The notes beneath the pieces are model-generated. The model searched no databases. It saw nothing but the letters and a program-made list of their open reading frames with translations, and was not told where the DNA came from. A stretch of 64,000 bases of DNA. It comes from Astrocystis sublimbata (lineage: Eukaryota; Ascomycota; Sordariomycetes; Xylariales; Xylariaceae). The position numbers and the translations under genes were made by a program. This document shows positions 23,829 to 60,219 of this stretch, one piece after another. The stretch lies in contig JAJNNY010000020.1 of NCBI GenBank assembly GCA_022453515.1, positions 310,001 through 374,000 on the forward strand, in the 5' to 3' direction. The stretch's first letter is position 1; each line of letters opens with the position of its first letter.

Positions 23829-26800
23829 ATGATGGCGTTAAGACTTCAACGTTATCTATATCTCATCATTGCCTGTCTGAGCACATGTTCTGTCAATGCT
23901 AACGAAGGGACCGGCATCACACACCAAAGTCCGGAACGCGCATTGCCTGAACTCGGAGCTCCCTATAGTGGCTGGCAGATTGCACAGGATGCTGCCTCGC
24001 ATGCTCTAGGTCAATCAGTCACAAGTCATCAGGGGGCAAGCTCCCTAAGCAAGAGGCAGAGGGAAGAAGATCCAGCAACGGGCGCGCTGTATTGTAAGGA
24101 GGGGCCTTGCGTCGATGGCAGGTGAGTCTTACCCTTGTCTCGTCTTGTGTTAAGGGGATCAAGATTCATTTCACATCACTAACAAATCGTTGCATCAAGT
24201 TGTTGTGGTCCCGGTAACGTATGCGGATATGGCCCCGACTTCTGCGGAGACGGTTGCACTAGCGACTGTGATGCGACAGCTATGTGCGGGATTTATTCTG
24301 TCAACGGGTCCTCGTCCTGCGGTATGAATTTGTGCTGCAGTTGGGGTAAGAACACCAGGCATGACTCTTCGTGAAAGACTAATGCTGACAATTGCCATTT
24401 AGGTGGGTGGTGTGGTACAACAGAAGCCCATTGTATCGAAGTCAACGAGTTCACAAAATGCCAGGAGGGCTACGGACTCTGTGAGATTATTCGCCCTCTT
24501 CTCTGCGGGGAGGACTCAGGCACCGCGAACGGTCGCTCAGTTGGCTACTATCTAGCATCCAACTCGCGCAACCGGATCTGCAATCGCATCACACCAGATC
24601 ACATCCAGACCAATGGTTATACACACCTCTTCTTTTCGTTCGCCTCAATAGACTCAGTGTCATTTTTGGTCAAGCCTTGGGAGAAAGAAGACATATCTTT
24701 GATGACGGCATTCACCCAACTGAAGACTTCAACGTTACAAACATGGATCGCCGTGGGGGGCTACGACTTCAGCGACAAGGGATCGCCAACACATACGACA
24801 TGGAGCGATCTCTGTGCCCATTCCGAACGTCGGGCTGCTTTCATCAGCTCCGCCATGGCGTTCATGGACCAATATGGCTTCCAAGGCATGGATCTAGACT
24901 GGGAATACCCCGTAGCTCCTGAAAGAGGAGGGCATCCAGATGATACGCAAAATTTTGTGAAGCTGGTACGGGAGATGAGGGCTGCGTTCGGCTCCAAGTA
25001 TGGCCTCAGTTTGACCTTAGCTCCCGACTACTGGTACCTTCGCAACTTCGACGCAAAGACCATGGAACCTTATGTGGACTTCTTTGGCTTCATGGCCTAC
25101 GACTTGCACGGATCGTGGGACACTGATGTGCTGGCTCTTGGCGCTCTTGTTCGCGGCCAAGCAGACATTCGAGAAATCTACAACGACACTCTGCCACTGT
25201 GGTATGATGATCTTGATCCTGCTAAGATCAACTTTGGTCTCGCTTGGTACGGCCGCGGCTACACACTTGCTGATCCAAGTTGCAATCAGCTTCTGTGCCC
25301 CTTCAAGGCACCCAGTAAGCCAGGGAAGTGCACAGGGAGTCCTGGAGTCCTTTCACTTCGCGAGATACAGCAACTTATAGCAGAAAAAGGACTTCAGCCG
25401 CGACTCAACACCGAGTCTATGATGAAGGAGCTGTTTTGGGCGGATCAGTGGATCGGCTACGACGACGAAGAAACACATGCTCTGAAAAGGAAGTTTGCAA
25501 ACAATCTCTGCTTTGGTGGCACGATGGCCTGGAGCGTCGACTTCAACTCGGGAGTTGGCGATGGCGACCAGCCGCCCCCGTCAACAGACGGTCGCTGTGG
25601 ATCCGGTACTGGCGGGAAGGTTTGCGAGGGTAGCGGATTTGGCGATTGCTGCTCGTCCAAAGGATACTGCGGGAGCAGTACAGACCACTGTGGGAACGGA
25701 TGCCAGAGCGGTCTTTGTTCTATCAACAGTGAGACTACCGACGGGACATGTGGTGCCGCATACAACGACATTGTCTGTGGTCCGTGGCCTAAGGGGAGTT
25801 GTTGTTCCCCTGCAGGTTATTGTGGCAGCTCAGAAGACCACTGCGGCCCTGGATGTCAAAGCGGACCTTGTTTACAGGACCCTAATGGTAGTGGCTCTGG
25901 GGACATATACATTGACAACACGGTATACGTTCAGCCTGCCCCTACCGTCCAGTGTTTCCCCCCCTGTAACTTTGTCTTCCCCCCTTCAACCATTCCCACC
26001 GCCACTACTGTTTCATTTGCGCCCGTCAGAACAGCTTTGACGATCGGCGATTCAGTGATCACAACAACCATCACACCTTCACCAGGTAAGAGTTCACAAG
26101 CGGCAAATAGAGACAGTTCATTACTAAAACGACAACAGTCACGACGAGCGTCATCTGGTTCTCAAATCTGCATGTATCTTCGGGCCAGAGCACCAGCGCC
26201 TTTGCGCTTACATCCAGTTTCAAGCCAGACCCGATTGTGGTAACTTTGAACGGCGTAACGAGTACACTAGCTCTCCCAGCAACATCAATTCTTCCAGACA
26301 GCTCTACCAACTTGCCACCTATCATATACTATAGCCTCCCAACTACGGTTTATTCAACAAGTGGCACCACGCAGACCTTTTCACAGGACCAGATCACCTG
26401 GCTAAGTCGATTACAGGAACTTCCACTAGTACAACCTCATGGTTTGTTGACGAGACTTCTTCGACACCTCCACTACGTCTACTACTGCAGTACCGATTAT
26501 TATCGGACCTGGTGGTTTCTATTGGTCTCCTATTCCGGCACCATCGGGGCCCCAGTTCCCCATTCCAAATCTTCCCAAGGTTCCCCCTCCCCCTGATCCG
26601 CCTTGCTTCACGCTTTTTGGTATCTTTTCTATCAATTGCCCCCCTAATCACAACGTTCCAACGTCTCACTACACACGAGGGGCACCGAAGCCAACTTGCA
26701 CAGCGAACTGTGGAAAAAGGGATGACCCATCAGAAGGCAACGAGTCTAAGAGCACATGTGCAACTGAGACGCATACCAAGTGCCTGACTCGCGCTGGATC

Positions 26801-28227: not shown

Positions 28228-29242
28228 TCACACCGGTTGCTCGCCCTTATACTCAGGATCCGTAGGCTTGATCATATCACTATAATTTGCAGCCCGACCC
28301 TTCATCCAGTCATGCAGAGCCTCCCAATCGACACACATGCGTGGCTGAGGAATGGTGACGGCCGGCTTAACCTTGTTTGCTGGCGTCCACTTGAGCGTGT
28401 AAACCTCCGAGCTGCCTGAGCAGAGTATCTCTTGGCGGATCGACTCGAGGCAATGATCCATGTGATACTCGAGCTCTTTCCAATCCTGTTCACCAGGATA
28501 GTACTACTCCGGGTGGATATACTGTTTGATGCGTTTCTGTAGCTATGATTAGTCTATGAAGATTTGTTGGCGCGATTGTTTTTCGCAAAGTTTTGAGTTT
28601 GGCAAACATGACCCTTCAACCATTTTGTGAGTGGAAGGGTCGAGAGACCCTAAGGGCTAGATCTTCAGGGCAGCTCGACGGGGGGAAATTCATCTAACAT
28701 ACCAGACAATGTAGGGAATGGGAAATAGCCAGTCCACCCACATAGCCACCATCTTTATGTGCGATTGACTTTGCATTACCTGCTTGTCGAAGTTCTTCGT
28801 CTGTGAACTTGATCAGGGTCCCGTCGAGAAGCTTGTGCCATGCGTCATCAAGCTCTGGCCTCGGCTTTCCGGTGAACTTGTGACTATCTGGATCGTCTTG
28901 GAGAACTTTGTTGACGTATGTCAACTTCAACGGCACTGTGGGGAGGAATCAGTCCTCTATCTTTTCATGATACGAGGGAGTCGGGCTATCACCATAAGGT
29001 GCCTCTACCCCTGGCGGAATCCGAGATGGACAGTGAAGCTGGTTGATATTGTAAATTGCTCCACTGATAGACAGTAGCCCTATCACCACTGTGGTGAATA
29101 AAATACGATAGAATCTCCGTTTCCATATACTGCCGAGGTGCATTGCCGGCGGTTCATTGTCAGAGTCTTCACTGTGTCGATCTGACATCTGCGCGTATTG
29201 AAACTTATCATCTAGAAGCGGCGCCATCGTGAATGAGGACAT
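28228..29242 (-). CDS. UstYa-like oxidase (DUF3328) with an in-frame TAG
   Basis: Exons 29242-28993, 28935-28703 and 28536-28228 join in frame over 264 codons. Residues 43-64 form a single membrane anchor. A UstYa-type core follows (KFTGKPRPELDDAWHKL), then both signature motifs, HSLHC (156-160) and HMDHC (186-190), followed by ESIRQEILC. UstYa family proteins catalyse oxidative macrocyclisation or other oxidations, chiefly of ribosomal peptides (ustiloxin, phomopsin, asperipin). Codon 172 is TAG (28504-28506) between the two motifs, where HPE is followed by YYPGE. Frame, spacing and sequence continue perfectly after it, so this is one base change from an intact gene: a nonsense allele or a sequence error. 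The gene is divergent from the Kex2-type repeat precursor 0.9 kb away, the expected partner of this family. The start could also be the ATG at 29227. Confidence 0.85.
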
Positions 29243-30152
29243 GGGCTTGTCTAGTGTTTTCTTCCCTCGCAGACAAAACCTCAGAGGAAAAGATAGATAT
29301 TGCTCAAAGCAGGGAAGCGAGGAACAGTTCATCTGTAGGTGATGCGCAAAACGTATATAAGGAGAAATACGAGTTCACGCTCGGCCAAATGATATTCAAT
29401 CCAGTATTGCCTTCTTTTACAAGACGCCCACAGACAACATGGGTATACATGTTGCATTGATGGAGGATTTGTTGCCTGAGCCGATCCAGCTGCTCAACGA
29501 AATCCTTCCTTCCTTCAGCACCGGAACCGATACACCCCGGGTGCTACCACAGCAATCACCTCGCAGGACGATTGAGAACGACCAGTCATTTTGCCTCCTT
29601 ATCATACCGTAAATGAGGGGTTTCCTTCACCGCTGCTTGAAGATGTGATTGCCTTGATTTGATACGTATCATATCTGCAGGCTTCGTTTGTCAAGGTATC
29701 CTTAAGCCTTGTAGTTATCATGTTTCCTATTGCATATGTGGTGACTCACGAGCCTTACTGGCCGGGTCGTGTATATGACTCAGACGCATCAAGAATCATG
29801 TGAACTGTGTCATGACGTTGCTTGAGTCGTTGGAACGTCGGAGATGCACAGAATCGATTTGTAAGTGGCGAGTTATCATGCGGGATGCCCTGCTCTCTCG
29901 CTAGGGCTGGTTCGGTAGTGAATATGCCGGCACTTCGTAATTTTGAGCTCGGCATGTTGAACCAAGCATTGCCGAGCGAGGGGGAGGCGAGATCGAGTAG
30001 AGATATGATGTTATATATATACCTATGCATCGCGCTGCCAAAGCTGCCAAGACGTCGAGTACCCTCATCTTCCCAAACTCCTGTTGCCGTAACTTCTAAC
30101 ACCATCTTGTTCACCAACCATATTCAAGACCCTCGACAACAAAAGCTCCAAA
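29243..30152. other. Divergent promoter region between UstYa-like gene and peptide precursor
   Basis: About 0.9 kb separates the two start codons, room for both promoters. Frames of 120-133 codons on opposite strands at 29.8-30.2 kb overlap the precursor start or lack motifs and are not called. Confidence 0.55.
30011..30021 (+). promoter_or_regulatory. Putative TATA box of the peptide precursor gene
   Basis: TTATATATATA lies about 132 bp before the ATG at 30153, a plausible distance for a highly expressed secreted-peptide gene. Inferred from sequence only. Confidence 0.4.
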
Positions 30153-30402
30153 ATGAAAGCACTCGGTCTAATCGTGTATCTTGGGTTCTGCATGTCGGCG
30201 TTAGCACTGCCCATGTCCAGTAAGATGTCTCCCGTATGTATTGAAGATGACCATGGAGCCAGCCTAACGCAGTAAAGAAACAGAACACGCCGATGGGCAA
30301 CTTGACAAGAGAGACGGTCATTCAGAATTCGATGCAGATCTGGCCATTTTGAAGAAGAGAGACGGCGCTTCCGAATTTGACGCGGACCTCGCGATTCTGT
30401 GA
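30153..30402 (+). CDS. Kex2-processed repeat peptide precursor, candidate RiPP/dikaritin precursor
   Basis: Two exons, 30153-30219 and 30284-30402, are joined by a 64-bp intron (GTAAGA donor, CCTAAC branch, CAG acceptor) and encode 61 residues. Residues 1-19 are a signal peptide (MKALGLIVYLGFCMSALA). A short pro-region ends with LDKR; the first repeat is DGHSEFDADLAIL (33-45), then KKR, and the second repeat DGASEFDADLAIL (49-61) ends at the stop codon. Kex2 cleavage after each KR and trimming of the basic residues would release two 13-mers. This is the layout of UstA/PhomA/AprA-type precursors and of other Kex2-processed repeat proteins, and a UstYa-like gene is the divergent neighbour. The repeats lack the Trp/Cys pattern of alpha-pheromones and lack Tyr; Phe, Ser and Ile are conceivable crosslink sites. 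Product and activity are unknown. A reading without splicing would stop after 40 codons. Confidence 0.85.
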
Positions 30403-35002: not shown

Positions 35003-37758
35003 CTATGTACAACAAAAAAGTACCGTTATTAGCCACGACTCAATAGCGATTTTGGCAGTTGAACAGATAGTTATTTCACCATTGTGTCCTCCATTGAGAT
35101 TAACGGCTGATAGTGGTCCTTCCTCCTTCTTATTCCTCTGAATTTTGCATAGGGAGTAATCATTTCTTGACCAGTGTGGAGTTCGCATCTTCAAGATCAA
35201 TGTTCTGGACTGTGACATTGTCAGTACTCCTACTCCATAAGATTGGTCGGATGAGTTACTTTGAATCTCTTCCACCTGCCCTTCGGACAAGTGTGTGTCA
35301 CAAGGCAAGGAACTGTTGTCTTGTGAGTCGGCTGTTGTATGAGACCACTCTGATCCAATTGTTGCCTCGTGCGCTTGGGGCAACTGGATGTCGTCCTCGA
35401 GTGAAGCGTTTGACCGGACACTCTGTAGTGATCTGCGACTAGATGCAAGAGATGCTTCCTGATTCTGCGCAGCACCATGTACTGCATTAGACGCAGAAAA
35501 GGAGCTCCATGTGTTGTTGAGGCTTCGCTGTTCTCGGCACAATGGCTTGAGGGTAGGATGGCTCGGATTCGAGATGTCCAATTCTCCCAGCAATTCACCC
35601 TCCTTCGCTCTTGGTACCAAATCAGTGCAATTGGACCAGGTACCGAATCCAGCTTTCTCCTGTGCTAAACGTTGTAACTGTAGAGTTGAATTGCTAGTCC
35701 ATTCGAGATGTTCGTATTTCTTGTATCCTTTCTTCCGATATAGGTATGTAGATACTGGCTCTAGCAAGTAAGACGTTATTACGAAAGAGCAGCCAATTAA
35801 AAAAACAAACACCAAGCCAAAAAGAGAAAATGACCCATACGCGGTGGTACGCGTTTTCTACTCGCAGTTAGCATCCATTATCGTGAATCAGTTGTAGAGG
35901 CTCAATCTCAGAGATCCAAGAAATTCTGCACTTACTTGACTTTCACATAGCTCCCTCAATTCAGGCATTGTATAATTGATTCGCTGACTCAATGTGGCTT
36001 GATCGGTCGGGCCATAAGCGTGACCTATAAATGCTGCTTGGCGGGCTGCCATTGATATATTCCACCAATGCGCCACATCAAGTTGCCATTGGTCCTTGGC
36101 CAGGACGTATTGAATTGAATTAGCTAAGTATGTTTGCGACTGGAGACTTGATGACCCAAGCTGGCCTATCAAGTCTATAATCGACAAATCAGATACGGCT
36201 CGAGCAACATAAAGGAAGAGGGCCGCTTTCCTATTCGTTGCGTTGCTGGCTGCGAATTCGTTATAAGTAATGTCAAAGAGGTCCACAGCACCAGCGACAG
36301 CATCGCGTAAACTAGCCAATGGACCACATTGTCGCTTTCCGGATATAGACTTGCAGAATTGGTGCTGGTCAGTGCAACCTAGTGGAGATGATGGTTCTGA
36401 CGGAAGATAGAAGGGGAAATGGGCGGATGAATTTGCAGAAATGAAACTTTGGTTCACTGGCGCAGCTGCTACTTGATACCAAGCGTCACTCGATGGCTCC
36501 ACGAAGGCAACTCCGTTCCCAGAAAGAAAATGAATTGTGACATCCGCATCTTCTCGAAAAATTGAGTCGATTAGGAAGAGAGTAGATCCGTTTCTAATCT
36601 TTCCACCTTGGACATCCGCAGGAAGTGGCCTAATTATTGATTCTCGTCAGCATAGAAGGGATGAAGATGTAATGTTTCGGCTATGTTGAACTCACTGAAT
36701 GTCTAAAATGGAGTAATCTACAATTGAGGCGTCAGAAAAGGCGAAAGCATATTGATCTTTGATAGATTTAGCTGCAAAAATATAGTCTTGAGCCCCAAGA
36801 GGACCAGTGGTATTGCCGTAGTGGTATAGAGTAGCCTCTCCAAAAGACGTGTTCTTTTTGCTGGTATATCCTGTTGTAACCAGTGGGGCACAATGATAGA
36901 CATTTCTCCAAAATACTCGGTGACCAGGTGGAGAATTGAGGCCAAAGGTATCGTGACTGCTCAAGTAGCCTGAATCAATGCGGATATTCGAAGAGCGGCT
37001 CCGACATATGTCATTTTGGAAAGGACACTCCGCGTATCTGTCCACATGGCCAACAATTTGCTTCTCAACGAATCGATCGCAATCAAGTAGGCCTCCGTCG
37101 CTTGAATAGCATTGCTGGGCATAGTTTGCTGCGCTGTTGATCTGCCTGGCACGGTAAGCGCCAGAAAAGAAATTTCGAACATAGAAGTCCCTCTCTCCTA
37201 CAACCGATTGCCCACAGTTCGCACTTTGAATCAAGACTTCGTCTCCAATCGCTGTTGAGACGGAGGAAGAATAGCCACTAGCGATAGTGAAAGCAATTAT
37301 ACAGATAGTTGCTACGGCCGTGGTAGAAAGTGGGCGGAAGCGTCCTTTTGAGCCTTTGCCACCACGTATGATATTGGCGAGCAACAAGATACCGTCTTCA
37401 GGTGTCGACGCATTACGTATGACAGCCTGCAAAGTTGGTCAATAACATAAACTTCGAAAGATCCAAAGAGAGCATCGAAAAATGAAGAATAGCAAAGAGC
37501 CTGAAGGCTTACCTGATGCTGGTGGTAAACAGCATTTTGTGGTGTTTCTTTTGAAACAAGTCGGTGGATCGAGAAACATACGATTCTCCAAATACGTGTT
37601 GCCACGAAAGCGATGAAGAAGGCCGTGAATGCAATAAGAAGATCGGCCTCCCGCCGGCGCAATGTTAAAGTGCCTCCAAAAATCTGCCCACGGGACCAAT
37701 TCGTCCAGGTTCCGACATATACAGGGTAGGGGATTGTTGTTTGTAAGGCAGGACTCAT
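35003..37758 (-). CDS. Large membrane protein with extracellular Cys-rich domain (paralog A)
   Basis: Four exons, 37758-37513, 37426-36696, 36629-35936 and 35857-35003, give 841 residues. I recognise no named domain. After YPVYVGTWTNWSRG, membrane segments lie at about 40-60 (ADLLIAFTAFFIAFVATRIW) and 113-135 (TTAVATICIIAFTIASGY). A long, presumably extracellular region with many Cys and N-glycosylation sites follows (CAPLVTTGYT; GPLASLRDAVAGA). A membrane segment near 570-590 (FGLVFVFLIGCSFVITSYLLEP) precedes a hydrophilic, Ser-rich cytoplasmic tail starting LEWTSNSTLQLQRLAQE. It is clearly homologous to the gene at 57854-60219, with identical coding length (977 nt) before the phase-2 junction and identical last-intron length (78 bp). 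The 86-bp first intron is absent from the paralog. Confidence 0.85.
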
Positions 37759-39460
37759 CTTAATAATTGGTTGAAGACTTATAAATGATGTGAGATAGTT
37801 GTTCAGAATAATGATGTAAATAGTAACATAATATTTTCAGGACTCGTGAGTCATAAATATTGTCTGGAATATTGTGATTGAGCGGGAAAAATAAGATGGC
37901 GACCGCCCTATTTACGTACAGTAAGCGATCAATCTCAATATAACTGAGTAGGAAAAGTAGGACGGCAACTATCTATCATTCACCTTGTGTGCTAGGTACG
38001 TAAGATGGTTAGAGCGGTAGATAGTCCGGAGGGCTGAGTAAACCGGATCTCGCTTTTTCCCACCCTGCATGGGCTGAGGGCCTGGGCGATTGATATTCGC
38101 CAACGAGACTTCACATATTGTGGCAGTTGGTTGCTAATCAGCATATGAAGCATGATTGCACATCTCTCCTGATAGGGTGTAGTTACTACTCCTGCTATTG
38201 TTCTTAGTTAATAATAGTGCATCGGACGCTTAGGCAAGCATCTATATATAGGGTGGGCTGATAGGAGGTGTGGTAGGTAAATAGCTCGCGCGTTATAGAC
38301 AAAGTTAGTTTTGGAAATATTTATCTGCAAATTCAGCTCATTAAGTTACTCGCCAAACTAGCATGACTAGTAGTTTGATGCTGCCCAAGGTTGATAAGCT
38401 CTTAGCAAGTTAGGAGTACTACTAAATAGGCAATGATATATACTGGGGAAAACGCCACAAGTTCTTGTGCATACTTAAACCTACCTAGTTCGGTAGGTAG
38501 CAACAGGCATAGCCTACCTAAGCCATTGCCCCATAATCTATGCATTGCCCTACGAACATCAAAAACTCAGACTCGGTACTTATATTATACTGCTTAATTA
38601 TTCAAAATGAACATATTTGACCAATCCTTATAAGAGTTGTATTTATAATGCTAGGAATGCTAATTCAAAGCTGTATATTTCTTTCGAGCTCCATGTGCCC
38701 AGGTTAACTGGCCTATATATTATACCTAATATGGAATTCATAGCTACAGAGTTAATAGCTGCAGACTTAAATTTTCTGTCCCTCCCTTGTTCCAGCTTCG
38801 AACCCACCGGCTTCCCAGCCCACCTACTTGCGCTAGCAGTTGATAGGAGACCATTGGCGCGCTCCTCTCTTGCCGAAAAGTGTCTCGATGCATTTGTCTA
38901 TTGCCAGACCAATGCGGGCTATAATGGCATCGACTTGTTGGATTTACCACTGTGCCAAAAAAAATTTCATTGCAGATCAAATATCGATTGCATTTATATA
39001 CTGAATCCAACACAAATAGCTATCTTACGTGTTTGACAGACTTCTGGCTATTAAAGTTGAAATAGATATGCCAATTATAGTACGCCACCGATCTCATTTG
39101 CATCTAGAAAGCACGGCCGGGAGTACCCGCATTAGCGGTGCAACACCCAAAAACGCCACACTCCTTCACCCCACCCAGCTTGCATATCACATCTTTCATT
39201 GACTCATCAACTCCCACACCCACCCACTAACTATGCTTACACAAGCGACTTGGTTTCCTAACAAACATCCAACTGTTTTGATAGTGCCCTTCTTACGGCC
39301 GAGGAGTTGGATGGCATGTGATTTGAGAAAGCAGCCATGAAAGTCCAGGCTCCCGTCGTCCGTGACAGTAAGATGGCAGGCACGGAAAGCTTGCAGTGAG
39401 GTAAAACCTTGGACTGTTCTAGGGCCCAGCTGACGACGAACAAGACCCCCCTACATGCAC
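37759..39460. other. AT-rich intergenic region
   Basis: Contains the imperfect inverted repeat CTACCTAG...GGTAGGTAG at 38481-38500. A 139-codon plus frame at 38617-39036 lacks motifs and is not called. 39240-39460 should be 3' sequence of the HET gene. Confidence 0.5.
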
Positions 39461-41526
39461 CTAGATGATTTCAATGATACCTCCTTCAGCAGCCACCTCA
39501 AAGCAACTAGGATCCTTGCTCCACGAATCCGCATCTCCCCCATGGCCATCAATGCACCGCCCATCAGCCAAAAGCCCAATCCTCCGAAACAAATGGCCAC
39601 CGTCATCGACAGGCTGCAAGAGGAGACTGAACTCGATATGTATCGTATCAAGCGCCTCATCAAGAAGGAAGAAAGAACTTCTCTCCAAAATCTCGACCCG
39701 GCTTATTCTACAAGCATACAGATTGCCCTTGTAGTTAGAATGATGGAATGTGTCGGGGTGGTCTAAGAACACCTTTCTCGTTTTTTCCGCAAATGGAATT
39801 CGCCAGTTATTAAGCAGGACTGGCGTTTCCTTCTCGGTACAGGGGAAGAAAGTCGCTTCGCCATATCTGAGCTCCACAGGGACGCTTGCGTGTTCCCGGG
39901 AACTGTGTGTCGAGATCACGTACAGAGGACTTCTCACGATAAGCGACCCTCCGGCCACTTTTCCAGTTGGGTCGGCAGAGCTTGGAGTGCATGTTGCCTC
40001 GACCAGCTCAAAATACGTGGCGAGCGTCTTTACGTGGGGTTTATCCTCCGTCGGGCGCCATCTATTCGGGTATACGATTTTGCGCGCCACACTCGCCCAC
40101 GACCAGCTCGGAGCGATATATCGGTCGTTGCTCTTGAGAGCCTCGGGCCCATACGGGATCCAAAGGAGATCAAGGTCTAGGGAGTCCTTCCAGAGACCAG
40201 CGAGATAGTGTGCGCCGGGCTTGAGCTCCATCATCTGTCGTGCAAGACCCGAAAGCGCCGGTAGTTTATCTTTCGAAAACGTTAGGTTCAAAGTTGAATA
40301 GAATTCGACAATCTTGCGCCACTTGTGCGGCAGAAGTTCGCGGTTCTTGCTTGTCACCATGATCTTGTTGAAGAGGAGATCGAGAGGCCTCTGGGCGCAC
40401 TCGCAGAGTAGGGACTCCGCGCAGTCCCAAAGCAGCTCGTATTGGCCAAATTGCAAGAATCTAGGTGACAAGAGTCGTTCTTGTAATACCCAGCCCCGTG
40501 TCAAAAGGGGAAATAGCTGGAGTACTCCAGAAAAGTCGTTGTTCACACTACTACCCATTGGAAGGGGGTGTCGTATCCCATGTCCTGGGTGCTCATGTAA
40601 TGTTGCGTTGTTCCCGAGGGAGTATTGGACGTGGATATTGTATGCTGCACCAGAGCGTGCAGTGCCTTTCAAAGTCGTCCCTGATTGTCTAGGGCTGTGT
40701 AGGCCGAGCCCTCCTTCACCGTTTCTGGATGCCGCCGCGGCGATTGTGATATAACTGTTGCTGTAGATTTCAGCCATCCTTGATGACTCCCGTTCCCAAT
40801 CCTCCACACTGTCTTGGATAATACAGAGGGAGTCGATCCAGACATATCGTATGCCTAGCTTTCGACAGACGACAATGGTGTCCTTGTAAGTAGCCGGAAT
40901 ACAGTCCCAGTCGATCCCGTTCATATGGCTTTCGAGTGTCTGTGACGTGGTCGTGAGCTGCTGTGCTTGTCCCCAGCAATGACTCAGGCAAACGTATTGC
41001 TCCCTCCTCGCAGCCCTTGCTACGAGGCGGACTGGCCCCCCAAGCAAGGCCGTATCAATTACTCTAGTAGGCAGAGTTGGAAGTTTAGCCGCATTACTAC
41101 AGTTATGATTTCTTCTACAGTTCTCTATCCATTGCAGAGCAGTTTGGAAACTGCCTTCGCCGTCATACTCGACGGAAGTGATGTCTCTATGCGTGGGCAA
41201 CATGCCCCACGGGCATGTCGTACCTAACCACGTCTCAGTCGTCCCGGAATTGCGAATTTGTGATTACAGACTGCGGGAGACTTACCCCACGAACACTAAA
41301 ACGACACAATCGCACTTGCCGAGGCCACGCGCACTGAGAACCGCGATCCCGCCTCAACGATGTGAGGAATGATGGCTTCCGCCTCATTCGGTACCATGGG
41401 CGACAGCGCAGCGTGGATACCTTGACACACGATGGAGCAGAACTCACATGTTGTTTTCTTCAAGTCTTTGAGGATGCGGGGCCATTGAGGATCAGACCAG
41501 TGCTCACAGCGATTGGACGGTGACAT
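39461..41526 (-). CDS. HET-domain (heterokaryon incompatibility) protein with in-frame TAG in exon 1
   Basis: Exons 41526-41286 and 41223-39461, with a 62-bp intron (GTAAGT...GTTAG), join in frame over 668 codons. The N-terminus has the short Cys-rich module seen in many HET proteins (CEHWSDPQWPRILKDL, CEFCSIVCQGIHAA). HET core motifs follow: YVCLSHCWG, YKDTIVVCRKLGIRYVWIDSLCIIQD, WERESSRMAEIYSNSYITIAA, and later GWVLQERLLSPR and WSWAS. HET proteins trigger non-self recognition and cell death on fusion of unlike hyphae. Codon 77 is TAG (41296-41298), four codons before the splice donor. Frame and total length fit only if this codon is read, so it is a nonsense change, a sequence error or a sign of a different exon end. 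Without exon 1 translation could start at the ATG at 41203 and keep the whole HET core. Confidence 0.85.
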
Positions 41527-54944: not shown

Positions 54945-57853
54945 GCAGCCTGATGAAACTCCTCTTAGTCGGACAGTGCGCCAATTCCAGGGTTGGACCC
55001 GATGATGGAATTAGATGTATTACAGGGAGCATAACTGGTGGGAAATAGGGGATAGCTATTGCATTAACTTCATACCTAAGGCTAGGTGTTCGAGTGCTAG
55101 TTGTAGCGAAGCAAATGGCCTACCCTTTTATGTTTTTAACCTTTTCGTGACCATGTTATTATTATTATTCTATTTAACGCCCGGGAAAGGCCTATGAAAT
55201 AGGGTAGTAATTAGTCGAGGTTCCTTTCCGAAGCCTCCCATAGGGCATAGGGGCGTGTCTAGCTGTAAGAGCAGCTCCCACATTAAACAAATCTAGCCAA
55301 CAAGCGCCGTAGTATTCTCGTAGGGGGTCCCTTCCTCCGGTTAAAAGGCGCGCCTATGTACTAATATATATTAAAATTAAGCAAAGAAAGCTAGCCGTAG
55401 GCCTTAATCGCTACCCCGAGGGTGTAGAATAGTGTTTGTTGTACTGTACCCGGAGATACTATAGGTAAATAAAGGGAATAAAAAAAAAAAAAAAAACAAA
55501 ACAAATAAGCCAAACTCTACGCCAACTCCAAAAACTCCCAGGCGTATATATTGCGTACCCAATCCGTTATCCTACCGCCTATCCCGCGATAGTATAAAGG
55601 TTACACAGATCCCCATACACCCCCGTTAGGCAGACAAATGCTTTAAACGCCTCTAAGCACGTCATTAATTTCTCGAAGTACTCCCGCCAGCTTGTTAGTA
55701 AGGCGGGCCGCTTCCAAGGCCTCTCCGGCTATCTCTAGAAATACCGCCGTACCCGGCAGCAGTACACAAAGTACTCCGGTACAGCAGTATAACCGTAGGG
55801 GCATTCAAGTTTTGCGTTTACGTAATAAAAGTAGCGATAGTACTATATAAAGTTTCTATACCCAGTCCGTATAACTAGCCATCGGTATAGTTCCTACTAA
55901 GTAAACACCCGGAACTTTAGTAGATATAAAATCTTATACTCAAGTTTCTAGTAGCGGTAGCATACCGAGAAATACTTAGCCTATTGTTCCTATAGAGCCT
56001 CTCAAACTTTATTCAAGGTTTTAAGCGCTTTTATACGTAATCTATATACTATAAGCTATAAATCCTAGTTAAAAGCTATATTAGTTCTACTTTTAGCGAG
56101 CTTATCTGCTTTCTCGTTCTTTTTAACGCTATAGTGCCCTAGGCACTATTTAATATATACGTTTTAGTATATCTTTATAATCTTTTAGAAGCGGAGATAT
56201 ATATTCTGTACCGAAACAGGGGCATCTTTACGCAGGTACTAGATTACCCCTATATTATCGAGGCACACCCAGATCCTGCTTTTAGAAACCTCGTACCGCA
56301 TCCAGAAAACGCGCCGGAGGCCCTTAAGTGCTCCAACAGCTTCGCCATCAAAGTTGATGGAGGGAGACGGTAGCCCTCCAGCGCCGCTAGCGATCTCCCT
56401 GTCCCGTTGGTAGATAGTATAGCCGTAGCCCACGCGCCGTTCCTTCTCCGAGCCGTCCGTATAGATTACTACATCGGTGTCGGGCAAAGTTTTGAGCCAT
56501 TCCCGGAAGCGCTTCGCCGCCGCTTCTTTCGTAAGGCCGCCAGTGGGATCTTCACGAGACCCCGCTTGATAACGGGGGGACTTCGTGACCATGTTGGCCC
56601 TGATATGCTTATAGAAGTACCCTCCCGGGGCGCTAAGATAGATTCTGCGAAGATAGTCCTGTAAATCATTTGCTCCCTATTGAGCCTGCCTATCATCATG
56701 ACTAGCACCACTCAGTCGTTCTAGATGGGCCATTGAATAGACACCACAGAGCCTCGTATTGTTCAGCTTTATTGGCCCCCACTAGCCAAGATTGACAGGG
56801 AAAAGTGCACATTCTGCGCTGTCGTCCCATACCCGATACAACGAGCCCTAAGATACAGAGACTGTTCGAGGCCGGGAAAGAGGGTGTACTATCTGTGAAG
56901 TTCATTCGACAAACTTATAAGCAGTCAGACGATAGCAGTAGGCTCAGCCAGATAAAGATCTGCACGTGCTGACTTAAGATCCATTTATAGAACGAGTACA
57001 AACGCCCCATGCTTTTCATTGGGGAATGCGACCCGATAACCTTCAGCTGCTCCGCCCCCAACAGGTGCAATACCTGCGGTCGAGATTTCTATAGGGCAGG
57101 CCGGGCGATACACGGACTATTGAACGCGTCACTGTGGGGACAATTCAATGCCATCGTCTGCAGGACTGCGGTTCCTGATGGAACGTTATGAAACAAAGAC
57201 ATCTGTGTTAGATCTGAATATTTGAACATCAAATAAATATCAAATACTGAATTACCAGTTCTGATCAGGCGAATCTCAGACCATATATAAGTCGTAAATA
57301 AGTCATCTGGGGGCTTTGTTTACTATACCTACCAGAAACTCTTCTATCAATTGGAAGTAATTAATGATATGTGATCGACCCAGTTAGTTAGGTTGAGGTT
57401 GCACTTTGTTGTTAGGCGATAAAATTGGTAGTGGGGCAGCCTGCCATATCGTTGCTATCTCTAGATAGTATCTAGGTATGCAGTGTCACCTATACTAACG
57501 TACCTGTCAATTCTATACCAACCACGCCACATGAACGTCATTTGACTCTATTTCTGGTCTCTCTTGCATAATACGTAAAATCTGAGCCCAATCGCTGTTG
57601 AACTATTGGGGTCCATGTCATTTTTTAGATCGACCTTCATGGCCCACCGGTGATCAAGTTGGCGATCTGACGCCACAGCCGTTGGCATGCACTGATGAAG
57701 CCCTAGGTAGTGAAAGCGACTCCCAAGATATATCTAGCCGATGTTATGCGCCCTCCTAATTCCTGTGCTGTATATGTAGTTCATAGGCCTACCTGTTATT
57801 TACGTGTGGTGACCAATTGTTATCTATATGAGTTCCAATTCATTTCTAGTAAC
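54945..57853. other. AT-rich region containing a retroelement relic
   Basis: Sequence around 55.2-56.2 kb is AT-rich with many TAG/TAA in every frame. A poly-A tract lies at about 55480-55496. Apart from the LINE remnant no gene is supported. 56.9-57.85 kb is plain AT-rich sequence before the next gene. Confidence 0.5.
55510..56711 (-). mobile_element. RIP-damaged non-LTR retrotransposon (Tad/LINE-like) remnant with RNase H
   Basis: On the minus strand 56592-56239 encodes an RNase H domain: VIYTDGSEKE (first Asp), FDGEAVGALKGL (Glu) and IWVCLDNIGVI (Asp). The sequence continues past a stop into YIK-stop-CLGHYSVKKNEKADKLAK, where WCPGH and GNEKADKLAK are expected; TGG to TAG, CCN to CTN and GGN to AAN/AAR are the changes made by repeat-induced point mutation. 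Reverse transcriptase is not recognisable in what remains. Towards 55510 the sequence is too mutated to read. Element ends are not defined. Confidence 0.75.
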
Positions 57854-60219
57854 ATGAATGATTCCACGACCTCAAACCCAAGCACTGGTGACCAGTACCC
57901 CGTTTACGTAGGTACATGGGTGAACTGGTCGCGCGGAAAGGTGTTTGGTCCTACGCTTACGCTGAGCAGACGAGATGCCGACCTTTTGATTGCATTTACA
58001 GCTTCATTCATCGCGTTCGTTTCAAGTCGCACGTGGAGAATCATGTGCTTCGTTGCCCATAGGATTTACTCGACGTCCGCTGAGCAAGATGCCGTCTACC
58101 ATCAACGCCAAACCATTTTACGCAATTCATATTCCCCCGAAGATGCTATAAACTTGCTGACAAGACTCTCTTGTTCAAAACACTACACGGGGAAACGGTT
58201 TCGAACGATTTCTATTGTTGCCATTGCCGCTTTTTGTGTTGTAGCTTTTACGACTGCGGCTGGTTTCTCTTCGCGGATCTCAACTGCAGTTGGGAGCGAG
58301 GTGTTGCTCCAAGGAACCCGCTGTGGTTATATAGAATATCCAGACCCTCTCACAGATCCCCAGAGTTATTTCCAGTGCATATTTTTTCAAAGCGGAAAGA
58401 CTGACAATGCTGCGAACTATGCTCAACAATGTTATACAGGTGACAAGATGGGATCCTTCTCCTGCGACCGTTTTGTAACGAGAAAGATCGACAGTGTTCA
58501 AGATCTCGACGCCCAATGCCCTTTCAACACAACGATTTGCAGGAAAAATTCCGGCAACATCCGGTTAGACACAGGATTGTTGGACAGCAATGACCACTTC
58601 GGTTTAAATGCATCCCCTGATCAGAGAATCCAGTGGAGGCATGTACTTCATTGCGCACCGCTCGAAACCGTTGGCTACACTAGAGAGGTAGCTACGCCGA
58701 AGGAGAACTACACTTTGTATTACTACGGGGCGACAGGCTCGGAACTTCTTCCTCTGGAGCACACATACCAAGCCCCGTCAATAGACTCTGACTATAGAGG
58801 GAAGAATGGCACGACTTATTTCAGAACCCAGTTGCTAGAGTCGGTTTTTCCCCTGTTTCCTCTCTTTGCACGTAATGCCTGGAGTCACATAGGAAGAAAT
58901 TTCTAACCTCACCTATACTACCTAGATCGACAGCAAGTCAAGTCAAGAATGGGGTCACATTCTCAAGTGGCTCATCATTCGCACCAATTAGGGAATTGTT
59001 CCGCCATGATGCAGATATATTTTTGGCGTTCTTGAGAGGAAATGGTGTTCTCTATTTAGATCCGACGACCGACGCCTGGTATCGTTTGAGAAATGAAAGC
59101 GTTGATTTCCACTTCGCTTTCGACCCTCAGGAAAGGCCTTTGGAAGCTTATTTACCTTCAGAGCCTGCGTCACCAATAGGTTGTACACAGCAGTTCCAAT
59201 TCTGCAACACTGCTATCAAGGGAGACAGCAGATGCGGCCCCCTAGCTAGTTTGCGCGACGCAGTAGCTGGTGCATCGTCTCTTTTCAATACCAGTTACGC
59301 CGAATTCTCAAATTACAACGCGGAATCGAGGGCTGGAACCCTTCTTGGCTATTTCGGCAACACATTTTTCACGTTCGACACCACAGTGGACAACATGATA
59401 GATAAATTAGGATCCAAAGGACTATTATCCCAAAGAACCTTGTACAGCGGGGTGCAAGGACCAATAGCATCTAATCAATGGCAGTTAGACTTCATCAACT
59501 TATGGAATGTGGCACTTTCTGCGACTCAAGCGGCGTTCGTCGACACTGCGGTCGGCCCTCCCAGTCAAACTCTGTCTGGAATCTGGTCGAACTATTCATC
59601 ATCTCAAACAAACAAGTTATGCAACAGCCAGGTATGTAGTCCCACTATTCTGCCTGTTTTTGCTTGTGAGGTACGCATCTCATGGTAATAACTAATTATA
59701 CACTTACAGAAGATACGAAGTTCTGCATATGCATCCTTTAGCCTGTTTGGCCTTTACTTTACTTTCGTTGTTGGCTTCCTTCTCATTATCACTTCATACT
59801 TACTGGAGCCTGTGTCTGAGTTTCTCTGTAAGAGGAAGGGGCATAGAACGTATGCTCACCTTGAATGGACAACAGGCTCAGCATTGCAGCTCCAACGCCT
59901 AGCGCAAGAAGAGATTGGGATGGGCACCTGGCACAAGTGCATAGACACAATTCCGTCGACCGAGAAAGGAGAGCTTCTGGGCTCCCTGGACATCACCGAC
60001 CTCGAACATCCCGTTCTCCGTCCCGCTCTCGAGACCGTTGATGATGTGAAGGCTTCTCTGCTTGCCGACGAGGCCTCGAGGCAAGATAAGATAGACACTC
60101 GGTTGGTGTTGCCGGAATTAAACATGGGAGATGACATAAGCGCGAGTCTCGACATGGTGTCTTCTCTAGAAGCCCCAGCTAGTCTCCGTTCAAAAGGAAG
60201 TACAGGTCATATGGAATAA
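57854..60219 (+). CDS. Large membrane protein with extracellular Cys-rich domain (paralog B)
   Basis: Exons 57854-58830, 58926-59631 and 59710-60219 encode 730 residues. The start ATG opens MNDSTTSNPSTGDQYPVYVGTWV. Membrane segments and Cys-rich extracellular region match paralog A at 35003-37758 almost throughout: YPVYVGTW-NWSRG, DADLLIAFTASFIAF, ANYAQQCY, CDRFV, HCAPLETVGYT, CGPLASLRDAVAGA, AYASFSLFGLYF, ITSYLLEPVS, HLEWTTGSALQLQRLAQEE. The first splice donor is weak (GTTGCT), but the 977-nt coding length before it and the phase-2 Gln codon equal those of paralog A, so it is probably right. Read without that splice the frame stops at 58905. The tail is shorter than in A. Function is unknown; a surface protein with three membrane segments is inferred. 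Confidence 0.82.

What the first reader, a model, noticed from the sequence alone, without database searches (positions are those of the whole stretch)
30153..30402. Unannotated-size gene for a two-repeat Kex2-processed secreted peptide
Seen: a spliced 61-codon gene with signal peptide, LDKR and KKR sites and two 13-residue peptides DGHSEFDADLAIL and DGASEFDADLAIL, the second ending at the stop codon. Known: UstA, PhomA and AprA precursors share this plan and are cut by Kex2. Inference: this is a RiPP (dikaritin-like) or other secreted peptide precursor whose core I do not recognise.
Basis: partly seen in the sequence, partly recalled or inferred. Interest (0 to 1): 0.92.

Follow-up and report, generated by a model that had tools for sequence, protein, structure and literature searches.

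The report
Fungal secreted-peptide precursor with oxidase neighbour
A small fungal gene encodes a probably secreted protein likely to be cut into two near-identical 13-residue peptides; it belongs to a widespread peptide family and sits beside a cyclising-enzyme gene that looks interrupted in this strain.

Summary
A spliced frame at 30153-30402 (61 residues plus stop) encodes a leader-like N-terminus and two 13-mers behind LDKR and KKR. Silent sites between the repeats are near saturation, yet one residue differs; 0 of 100 shuffled windows gave such a pair. The host is Astrocystis sublimbata; the protein is already a record, F4808DRAFT_459907, hypothetical. It is a divergent member of a family with core DGTTEFDPD, seen in 26 other named taxa over two searches. 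The genome holds two canonical paralogues, each with a 64-nt phase-1 intron at the same place and beside two UstYa (DUF3328) genes and an FAD monooxygenase. This supports a dikaritin-like RiPP precursor. Caveats: that UstYa carries an in-frame TAG between its two copper-site motifs, so modification in this strain is doubtful; the window core has no Tyr and no tyrosinase lies near, so it is not ustiloxin/phomopsin-type; with two repeats it is outside the published three-repeat census. A new member of a known kind; product and chemistry unknown.

The parts
30153..30219 (+). Precursor exon 1: leader-like N-terminus MKALGLIVYLGFCMSALALPMS
   Evidence: identical public protein P0006
30220..30283 (+). 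64-nt GT..AG intron, phase 1
   Evidence: same length, phase and place in both paralogues
30284..30402 (+). Precursor exon 2: pro-segment, LDKR, core 1, KKR, core 2, stop
30313..30351 (+). Core 1 DGHSEFDADLAIL
30361..30399 (+). Core 2 DGASEFDADLAIL, ending at the stop codon
28993..29227 (-). UstYa neighbour, proposed exon 1 (N-terminal tail and putative transmembrane helix); an upstream in-frame ATG lies at 29332
   Evidence: splice model; relatives. No Pfam hit on this piece alone
28703..28935 (-). UstYa neighbour, proposed exon 2, first HxxHC motif (HSLHC)
   Evidence: PF11807 E 1.2e-13 for 28694-28936
28228..28536 (-). UstYa neighbour, proposed exon 3, second HxxHC motif (HMDHC)
   Evidence: PF11807 E 4.8e-15 for 28228-28503; profile 138-220 with one TAG inside
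28504..28506 (-). In-frame TAG between the two HxxHC motifs, in a column that is one and the same residue in 21 of 21 aligned relatives (8 of 29 relatives left out of that alignment)

Best explanation
30153-30402 is a precursor gene of the dikaritin (ustiloxin-like, Kex2-processed) kind. Shown: the spliced frame (by homology, not by RNA), its two conserved repeats, the family, and the UstYa neighbour. Inferred: the leader sends the 61-mer into the ER; kexin cuts after LDKR and KKR; a carboxypeptidase trims basic residues, releasing two 13-mers; a membrane-anchored binuclear-copper UstYa enzyme then oxidises the DG-x-[TS]-E-F-D-[PA]-D core, perhaps at or next to the nearly invariant Phe; the product is exported. 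In this strain the neighbour UstYa is interrupted by TAG, so the last steps run only if splicing bypasses the stop or a paralogous UstYa acts in trans; otherwise linear 13-mers result. The confidence is for the precursor kind; oxidative modification of this gene's peptides in this strain I put near 0.35.
For: Frame and splice, intron conserved in both paralogues. Repeats under purifying selection, absent from 100 shuffles. UstYa neighbour by Pfam. All 3 of 3 family precursors found in the 42.6-Mb genome lie within 2 kb of UstYa hits, although 2-kb surroundings of the 29 hit groups I merged from 34 hits cover 0.24% of the genome. The UstYas of the three loci fall in one branch of 17 of 26 rows, support 93/80, short of the tool's mark for firm support. 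Family in other fungi. One proprotein-convertase P-domain hit in the genome is a candidate kexin. DUF3328 as binuclear copper oxidases: PMC12435403, abstract and passages.
Against: In-frame TAG in the neighbouring UstYa and a weak GTGATA donor in my intron 1. No FAD_binding_3 hit among the 22 window pieces given to Pfam (10, 2, 10; not all window ORFs), unlike both paralogous loci. No Tyr in the window core. No other named taxon gave a DGxSEFDADLAIL-like precursor; the nearest by eye is metagenomic P0029. In 4 of 4 other taxa where both turned up, the relative of the window UstYa and the canonical precursor are listed with contigs of different length. No transcript or mass data. The AlphaFold model of a relative is poor, pLDDT 56.
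Confidence: 0.8

Rival explanations
1. The gene yields unmodified linear secreted peptides, a signal or antimicrobial, processed like alpha-type pheromone precursors, and no oxidation occurs.
For: Interrupted neighbour UstYa; a core kept over three classes of fungi could be a signal; 1758 of 7878 published KEPs have a DUF3328 neighbour, so most have none (PMC7329392 section 7).
Against: UstYa beside 3 of 3 family loci in this genome, two of them also with an FAD monooxygenase.
Confidence: 0.3
2. The window locus is a decaying copy: its UstYa is a pseudogene and the precursor is a leftover, while the two canonical loci do the work.
For: In-frame TAG at a column that is one residue in 21 of 21 aligned relatives; weak donor; no tailoring gene other than UstYa seen among the pieces scanned; a divergent core: S at position 4 in its 2 of 2 units, against T in 92 of the 94 other units of the first 38 proteins.
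Against: Precursor frame intact, silent sites near saturation with residues kept; no other stop or frameshift in my UstYa exon models; the window UstYa segments are 82% identical to the Xylaria acuta relative over 97 columns.
Confidence: 0.4
3. Chance open frame.
For: Short, two exons.
Against: 0 of 100 shuffles, family in other fungi, silent-site pattern.
Confidence: 0.01

Closest known systems
Dikaritins / ust-RiPS (ustiloxin UstA, phomopsin PhomA, asperipin-2a AprA)
   Same: Leader, Kex2-bounded repeats, DUF3328/UstYa gene next door (PMC7329392 passages and section 7; PMC6514808 passages). UstA is thought to be cut to 13- and 14-residue peptides.
   Different: Window core has no Tyr and no YxI; two repeats only; nearest tyrosinase hit on this contig about 98 kb away, though the asperipin cluster as described lists no tyrosinase either; UstYa neighbour interrupted; product unknown.
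Kex2-processed repeat proteins (KEPs, Umemura 2020)
   Same: Same processing plan.
   Different: That census asks for at least 3 repeats of at least 8 aa (PMC7329392 section 13); this one has 2. Both paralogues have 3, and 22 of the 48 family proteins found have three or four units, some records being fragments.
Dikaritin precursors as called in Venturia inaequalis (PMC9632046)
   Same: Their rule, seen in passages: signal peptide, one or more repeats of at least 10 residues between kexin sites, DUF3328 gene close by. The window gene fits it, signal peptide by eye.
   Different: Different fungus; their sequences were not seen.
Conserved fungal KEP motifs of Le Marquer 2019
   Same: Secreted repeat peptides shared among fungi.
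   Different: The motifs printed in the section read (EDYXI, DADAATXYV[A/V]D, YVW[G/A][G/S], SPPHKT, QKLKVD, XSDW) do not include DGTTEFDPD (PMC6339444 section 10); the figure and supplement were not seen.

Membership tests
Dikaritin / ust-RiPS precursor | N-terminal signal peptide | tested here: inconclusive
   Hydrophobic N-terminus read by eye; no predictor run
Dikaritin / ust-RiPS precursor | Near-identical tandem repeats between dibasic sites | tested here: met
Dikaritin / ust-RiPS precursor | DUF3328/UstYa gene close by | tested here: met
   PF11807 hits on 28694-28936 and 28228-28503
Dikaritin / ust-RiPS precursor | That UstYa gene intact | tested here: inconclusive
   In-frame TAG; acceptors at 28504 or 28486 would skip it
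Dikaritin / ust-RiPS precursor | Oxidatively cross-linked product | not testable with these tools
   needs mass spectrometry
Ustiloxin/phomopsin type (YxI core with tyrosinase) | Tyr-x-Ile core | tested here: not met
   No Tyr in either 13-mer
Ustiloxin/phomopsin type (YxI core with tyrosinase) | Tyrosinase gene in the cluster | tested here: not met
   Nearest PF00264 hit C103:438560, about 98 kb from the precursor at C103:340153
KEP as defined by Umemura 2020 | At least 3 repeats of at least 8 aa | tested here: not met
   Two repeats (rule)
DGTTEFDPD precursor family (named here) | Units like DGTTEFDPD behind a basic site | tested here: met
   118 units of at least 5 of 9 identity in 48 proteins; window variants H or A at 3, S at 4, A at 8
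UstYa PF11807 | HxxHC(x)nHxxHC | tested here: met
   HSLHC and HMDHC both present in the DNA, with TAG between them

The most novel reading that the evidence does not exclude
DGTTEFDPD is a deeply conserved, phenylalanine-centred cyclic peptide shared by three classes of filamentous ascomycetes, made by a dedicated UstYa branch (with an FAD monooxygenase at the canonical loci) through a cross-link not of the Tyr-ether type, and acting as a signal rather than a lineage-specific toxin; the window locus is a diverged second version of it.
Probability: 0.2. Interest if true: 0.7.

Novelty: new member of a known kind. Interest (0 to 1): 0.45.

Why it matters
The three compounds compared in PMC7329392 (ustiloxin, asperipin-2a, phomopsin) are cyclised through Tyr. 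A conserved family whose 9-residue unit holds no Tyr in 48 of 48 proteins, beside UstYa genes in the one genome that could be read, is a defined substrate set for asking what else binuclear-copper DUF3328 enzymes do. Two-repeat members also show that a three-repeat rule can miss proteins of this kind.

Tried and rejected
Chance frame: rejected. Printed matches to the core: none for 12 core strings in the open-access library, none for 6 record names. Further precursors near FAD-monooxygenase copies on C1 and C165: no repeat found in 9 and 7.5 kb. Repeats near the other UstYa hits: none in the 3-4 kb loci held for 30 of 34 hits; wider flanks were not obtained. Solved-structure relatives of the UstYa: none at E up to 1. 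AlphaFold model of P0040 with 21 sequences: mean pLDDT 56, not used, no fold search made. Viral contigs: no relative. One search counted repeat units with a pattern that fixed or limited six positions and missed some units; replaced (one search stopped on a script error after printing the counts for the first 38 proteins). Neighbour genes of the relatives in other fungi could not be read.

Full report
Observation. The two-exon frame at 30153-30402 gives 61 residues and a stop. The two 13-residue cores differ at 10 of 13 codons, but only one codon changes the residue (His/Ala). By Nei-Gojobori counting, 9 of 11 base differences are silent, pS 0.98 and pN 0.067. A six-frame scan for Kex2-bounded repeats of at least 60% identity finds this pair only and none in 100 dinucleotide shuffles, where the best identity was 0.44. 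The host is Astrocystis sublimbata, from the names of the identical public protein P0006 and its neighbour P0039; taxonomy.

Family. A profile search with the window protein and its two paralogues gave 38 proteins at E up to 1, of which 26 carry organism names: 3 from Astrocystis and 23 from other taxa. A second search with 13 of the 38 gave 48 (only the 7993 candidates sharing most words were scored), ten of them new, three of these with organism names: Cercospora kikuchii, C. zeina and Cladorrhinum sp. PSN332. The taxa include Xylaria, Hypoxylon, Podospora, Triangularia, Cytospora, Aspergillus ellipticus, Paecilomyces, Septoria, Pseudocercospora and Cercospora; placing these in Sordariomycetes, Eurotiomycetes and Dothideomycetes is recalled. 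Taking every 9-residue stretch with at least 5 of 9 identities to DGTTEFDPD, 48 proteins hold 118 units: D1 117, G2 117, T4 114, E5 110, F6 113, D7 113, P8 90 with A 16, D9 112. The choice of units by identity raises these figures somewhat. No unit holds Tyr within its nine residues, but 15 of 48 proteins have Tyr in the four residues that follow. Phe is not strictly invariant. The window protein is an outlier: H or A at 3, A at 8, and S at 4, where the other 94 units of the first 38 proteins have T 92, A 1, V 1. Units per protein: one in 4, two in 22, three in 18, four in 4; some records are fragments. No other named taxon gave a precursor of the window type; the nearest by eye is the metagenomic P0029 (DGSTEFDADLAFF).

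Paralogues. Precursors at C19:21518-21673 and C132:243398-243520 have the same 64-nt phase-1 intron. Within the 10 kb read at each lie two UstYa genes and an FAD_binding_3 monooxygenase, the two monooxygenases being 66% identical. A search with a four-repeat relative finds the same three loci and no fourth.

The UstYa neighbour. On the minus strand, with a likely ATG at 29227, about 925 bp from the precursor's ATG, lies a PF11807 gene. Both HxxHC motifs are present, HSLHC and HMDHC. Between them the frame that continues the family profile without gap (138 follows 137) meets TAG at 28506-28504. In alignment A4 that column is one and the same residue in 21 of 21 rows. I had 29 relatives and left out eight: the host's own model P0039, P0044 and P0061, whose models lack or garble the stretch, and P0060 and P0064-P0067; of these P0065 and P0066 do show the stretch, P0067 ends before it, and P0060 and P0064 were not inspected. 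The public model P0039 skips the stretch and the putative transmembrane helix. P0044 from Xylariaceae sp. FL0255 skips the same stretch, which may mean that such splicing is real, that the predictor erred twice, or that both genes are broken. An acceptor at 28504 or 28486 would avoid the stop at the cost of residues conserved in the family; a CTAAT branch-point-like site at 28552 favours the acceptor at 28537 and hence the stop.

Phylogeny. The tree used 26 rows: 14 UstYa genes of this genome (of 29 hit groups) and 12 of the 28 relatives that are not the host's own; 98 columns were kept. The window UstYa groups with relatives from Xylaria intraflava and X. acuta (98/95). The UstYas of C19 and C132 join it in a branch of 17 rows at 93/80, below the tool's mark for firm support; ten inner branches are open and several rows are long. 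In Xylaria longipes, X. grammica, Xylariaceae sp. FL0255 and Cladorrhinum sp. PSN332, the relative of the window UstYa and the canonical precursor are listed with contigs of different length, so the window-type UstYa is probably not the partner of the canonical precursor there. Its partner in those fungi is unknown.

Mechanism. DUF3328 protein CctR is a membrane-associated binuclear-copper enzyme whose two HxxHC motifs hold the copper, and its authors extend this to the family (PMC12435403, abstract and passages). UstA is thought to be cut to 13- and 14-residue peptides; UstYa, UstYb and a tyrosinase are needed for the first intermediate (PMC6514808 passage). The genome has one P-domain hit as candidate kexin and no tyrosinase hit within about 98 kb on this contig. 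In 1758 published KEPs with DUF3328 neighbours, 65.6% of repeated sequences hold Tyr (PMC7329392 section 7), so Tyr-free cores are a known minority. Target residue and cross-link are my inference.

Place among known things. It works like a dikaritin precursor and fits the rule used for Venturia dikaritins (PMC9632046 passages), signal peptide by eye. It is not ustiloxin/phomopsin-type (no Tyr, no tyrosinase nearby) and falls outside the KEP definition by repeat count. Core strings and record names were not found in the open-access library, but supplements and most subscription papers were not readable, so the family may have been listed before. A survey of Hypoxylaceae and Xylaria hypoxylon found ustiloxin-like RiPP clusters by similarity to known precursors and said it could not judge the true RiPP diversity (PMC8403587 passages).

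Noticed in passing
35003-37836 (-) and 57707-60219 (+): Two similar multi-exon membrane-type genes in opposite orientation (both hold PVYVGTW.NWSRG and share long stretches, by eye); no Pfam hit on the three pieces scanned.
   Followed up: no
24375-26243 (+): GH18 chitinase reading frame with chitin-binding domain (PF00704, PF00187), probably with further exons towards 27888.
   Followed up: no
39461-41263 (-): HET-domain gene (PF06985).
   Followed up: no
L038 6717-6830 (+): Small frame with a signal-peptide-like start, divergent from a UstYa gene and near an FAD monooxygenase on C1; no repeats found. Could be the first exon of a single-core precursor.
   Followed up: partly
G000 C165:131802-132633: Third close copy (73% and 54% identical in two pieces) of the cluster FAD monooxygenase, with no precursor repeat found in the 7.5 kb around it and no UstYa hit listed on that contig.
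   Followed up: partly
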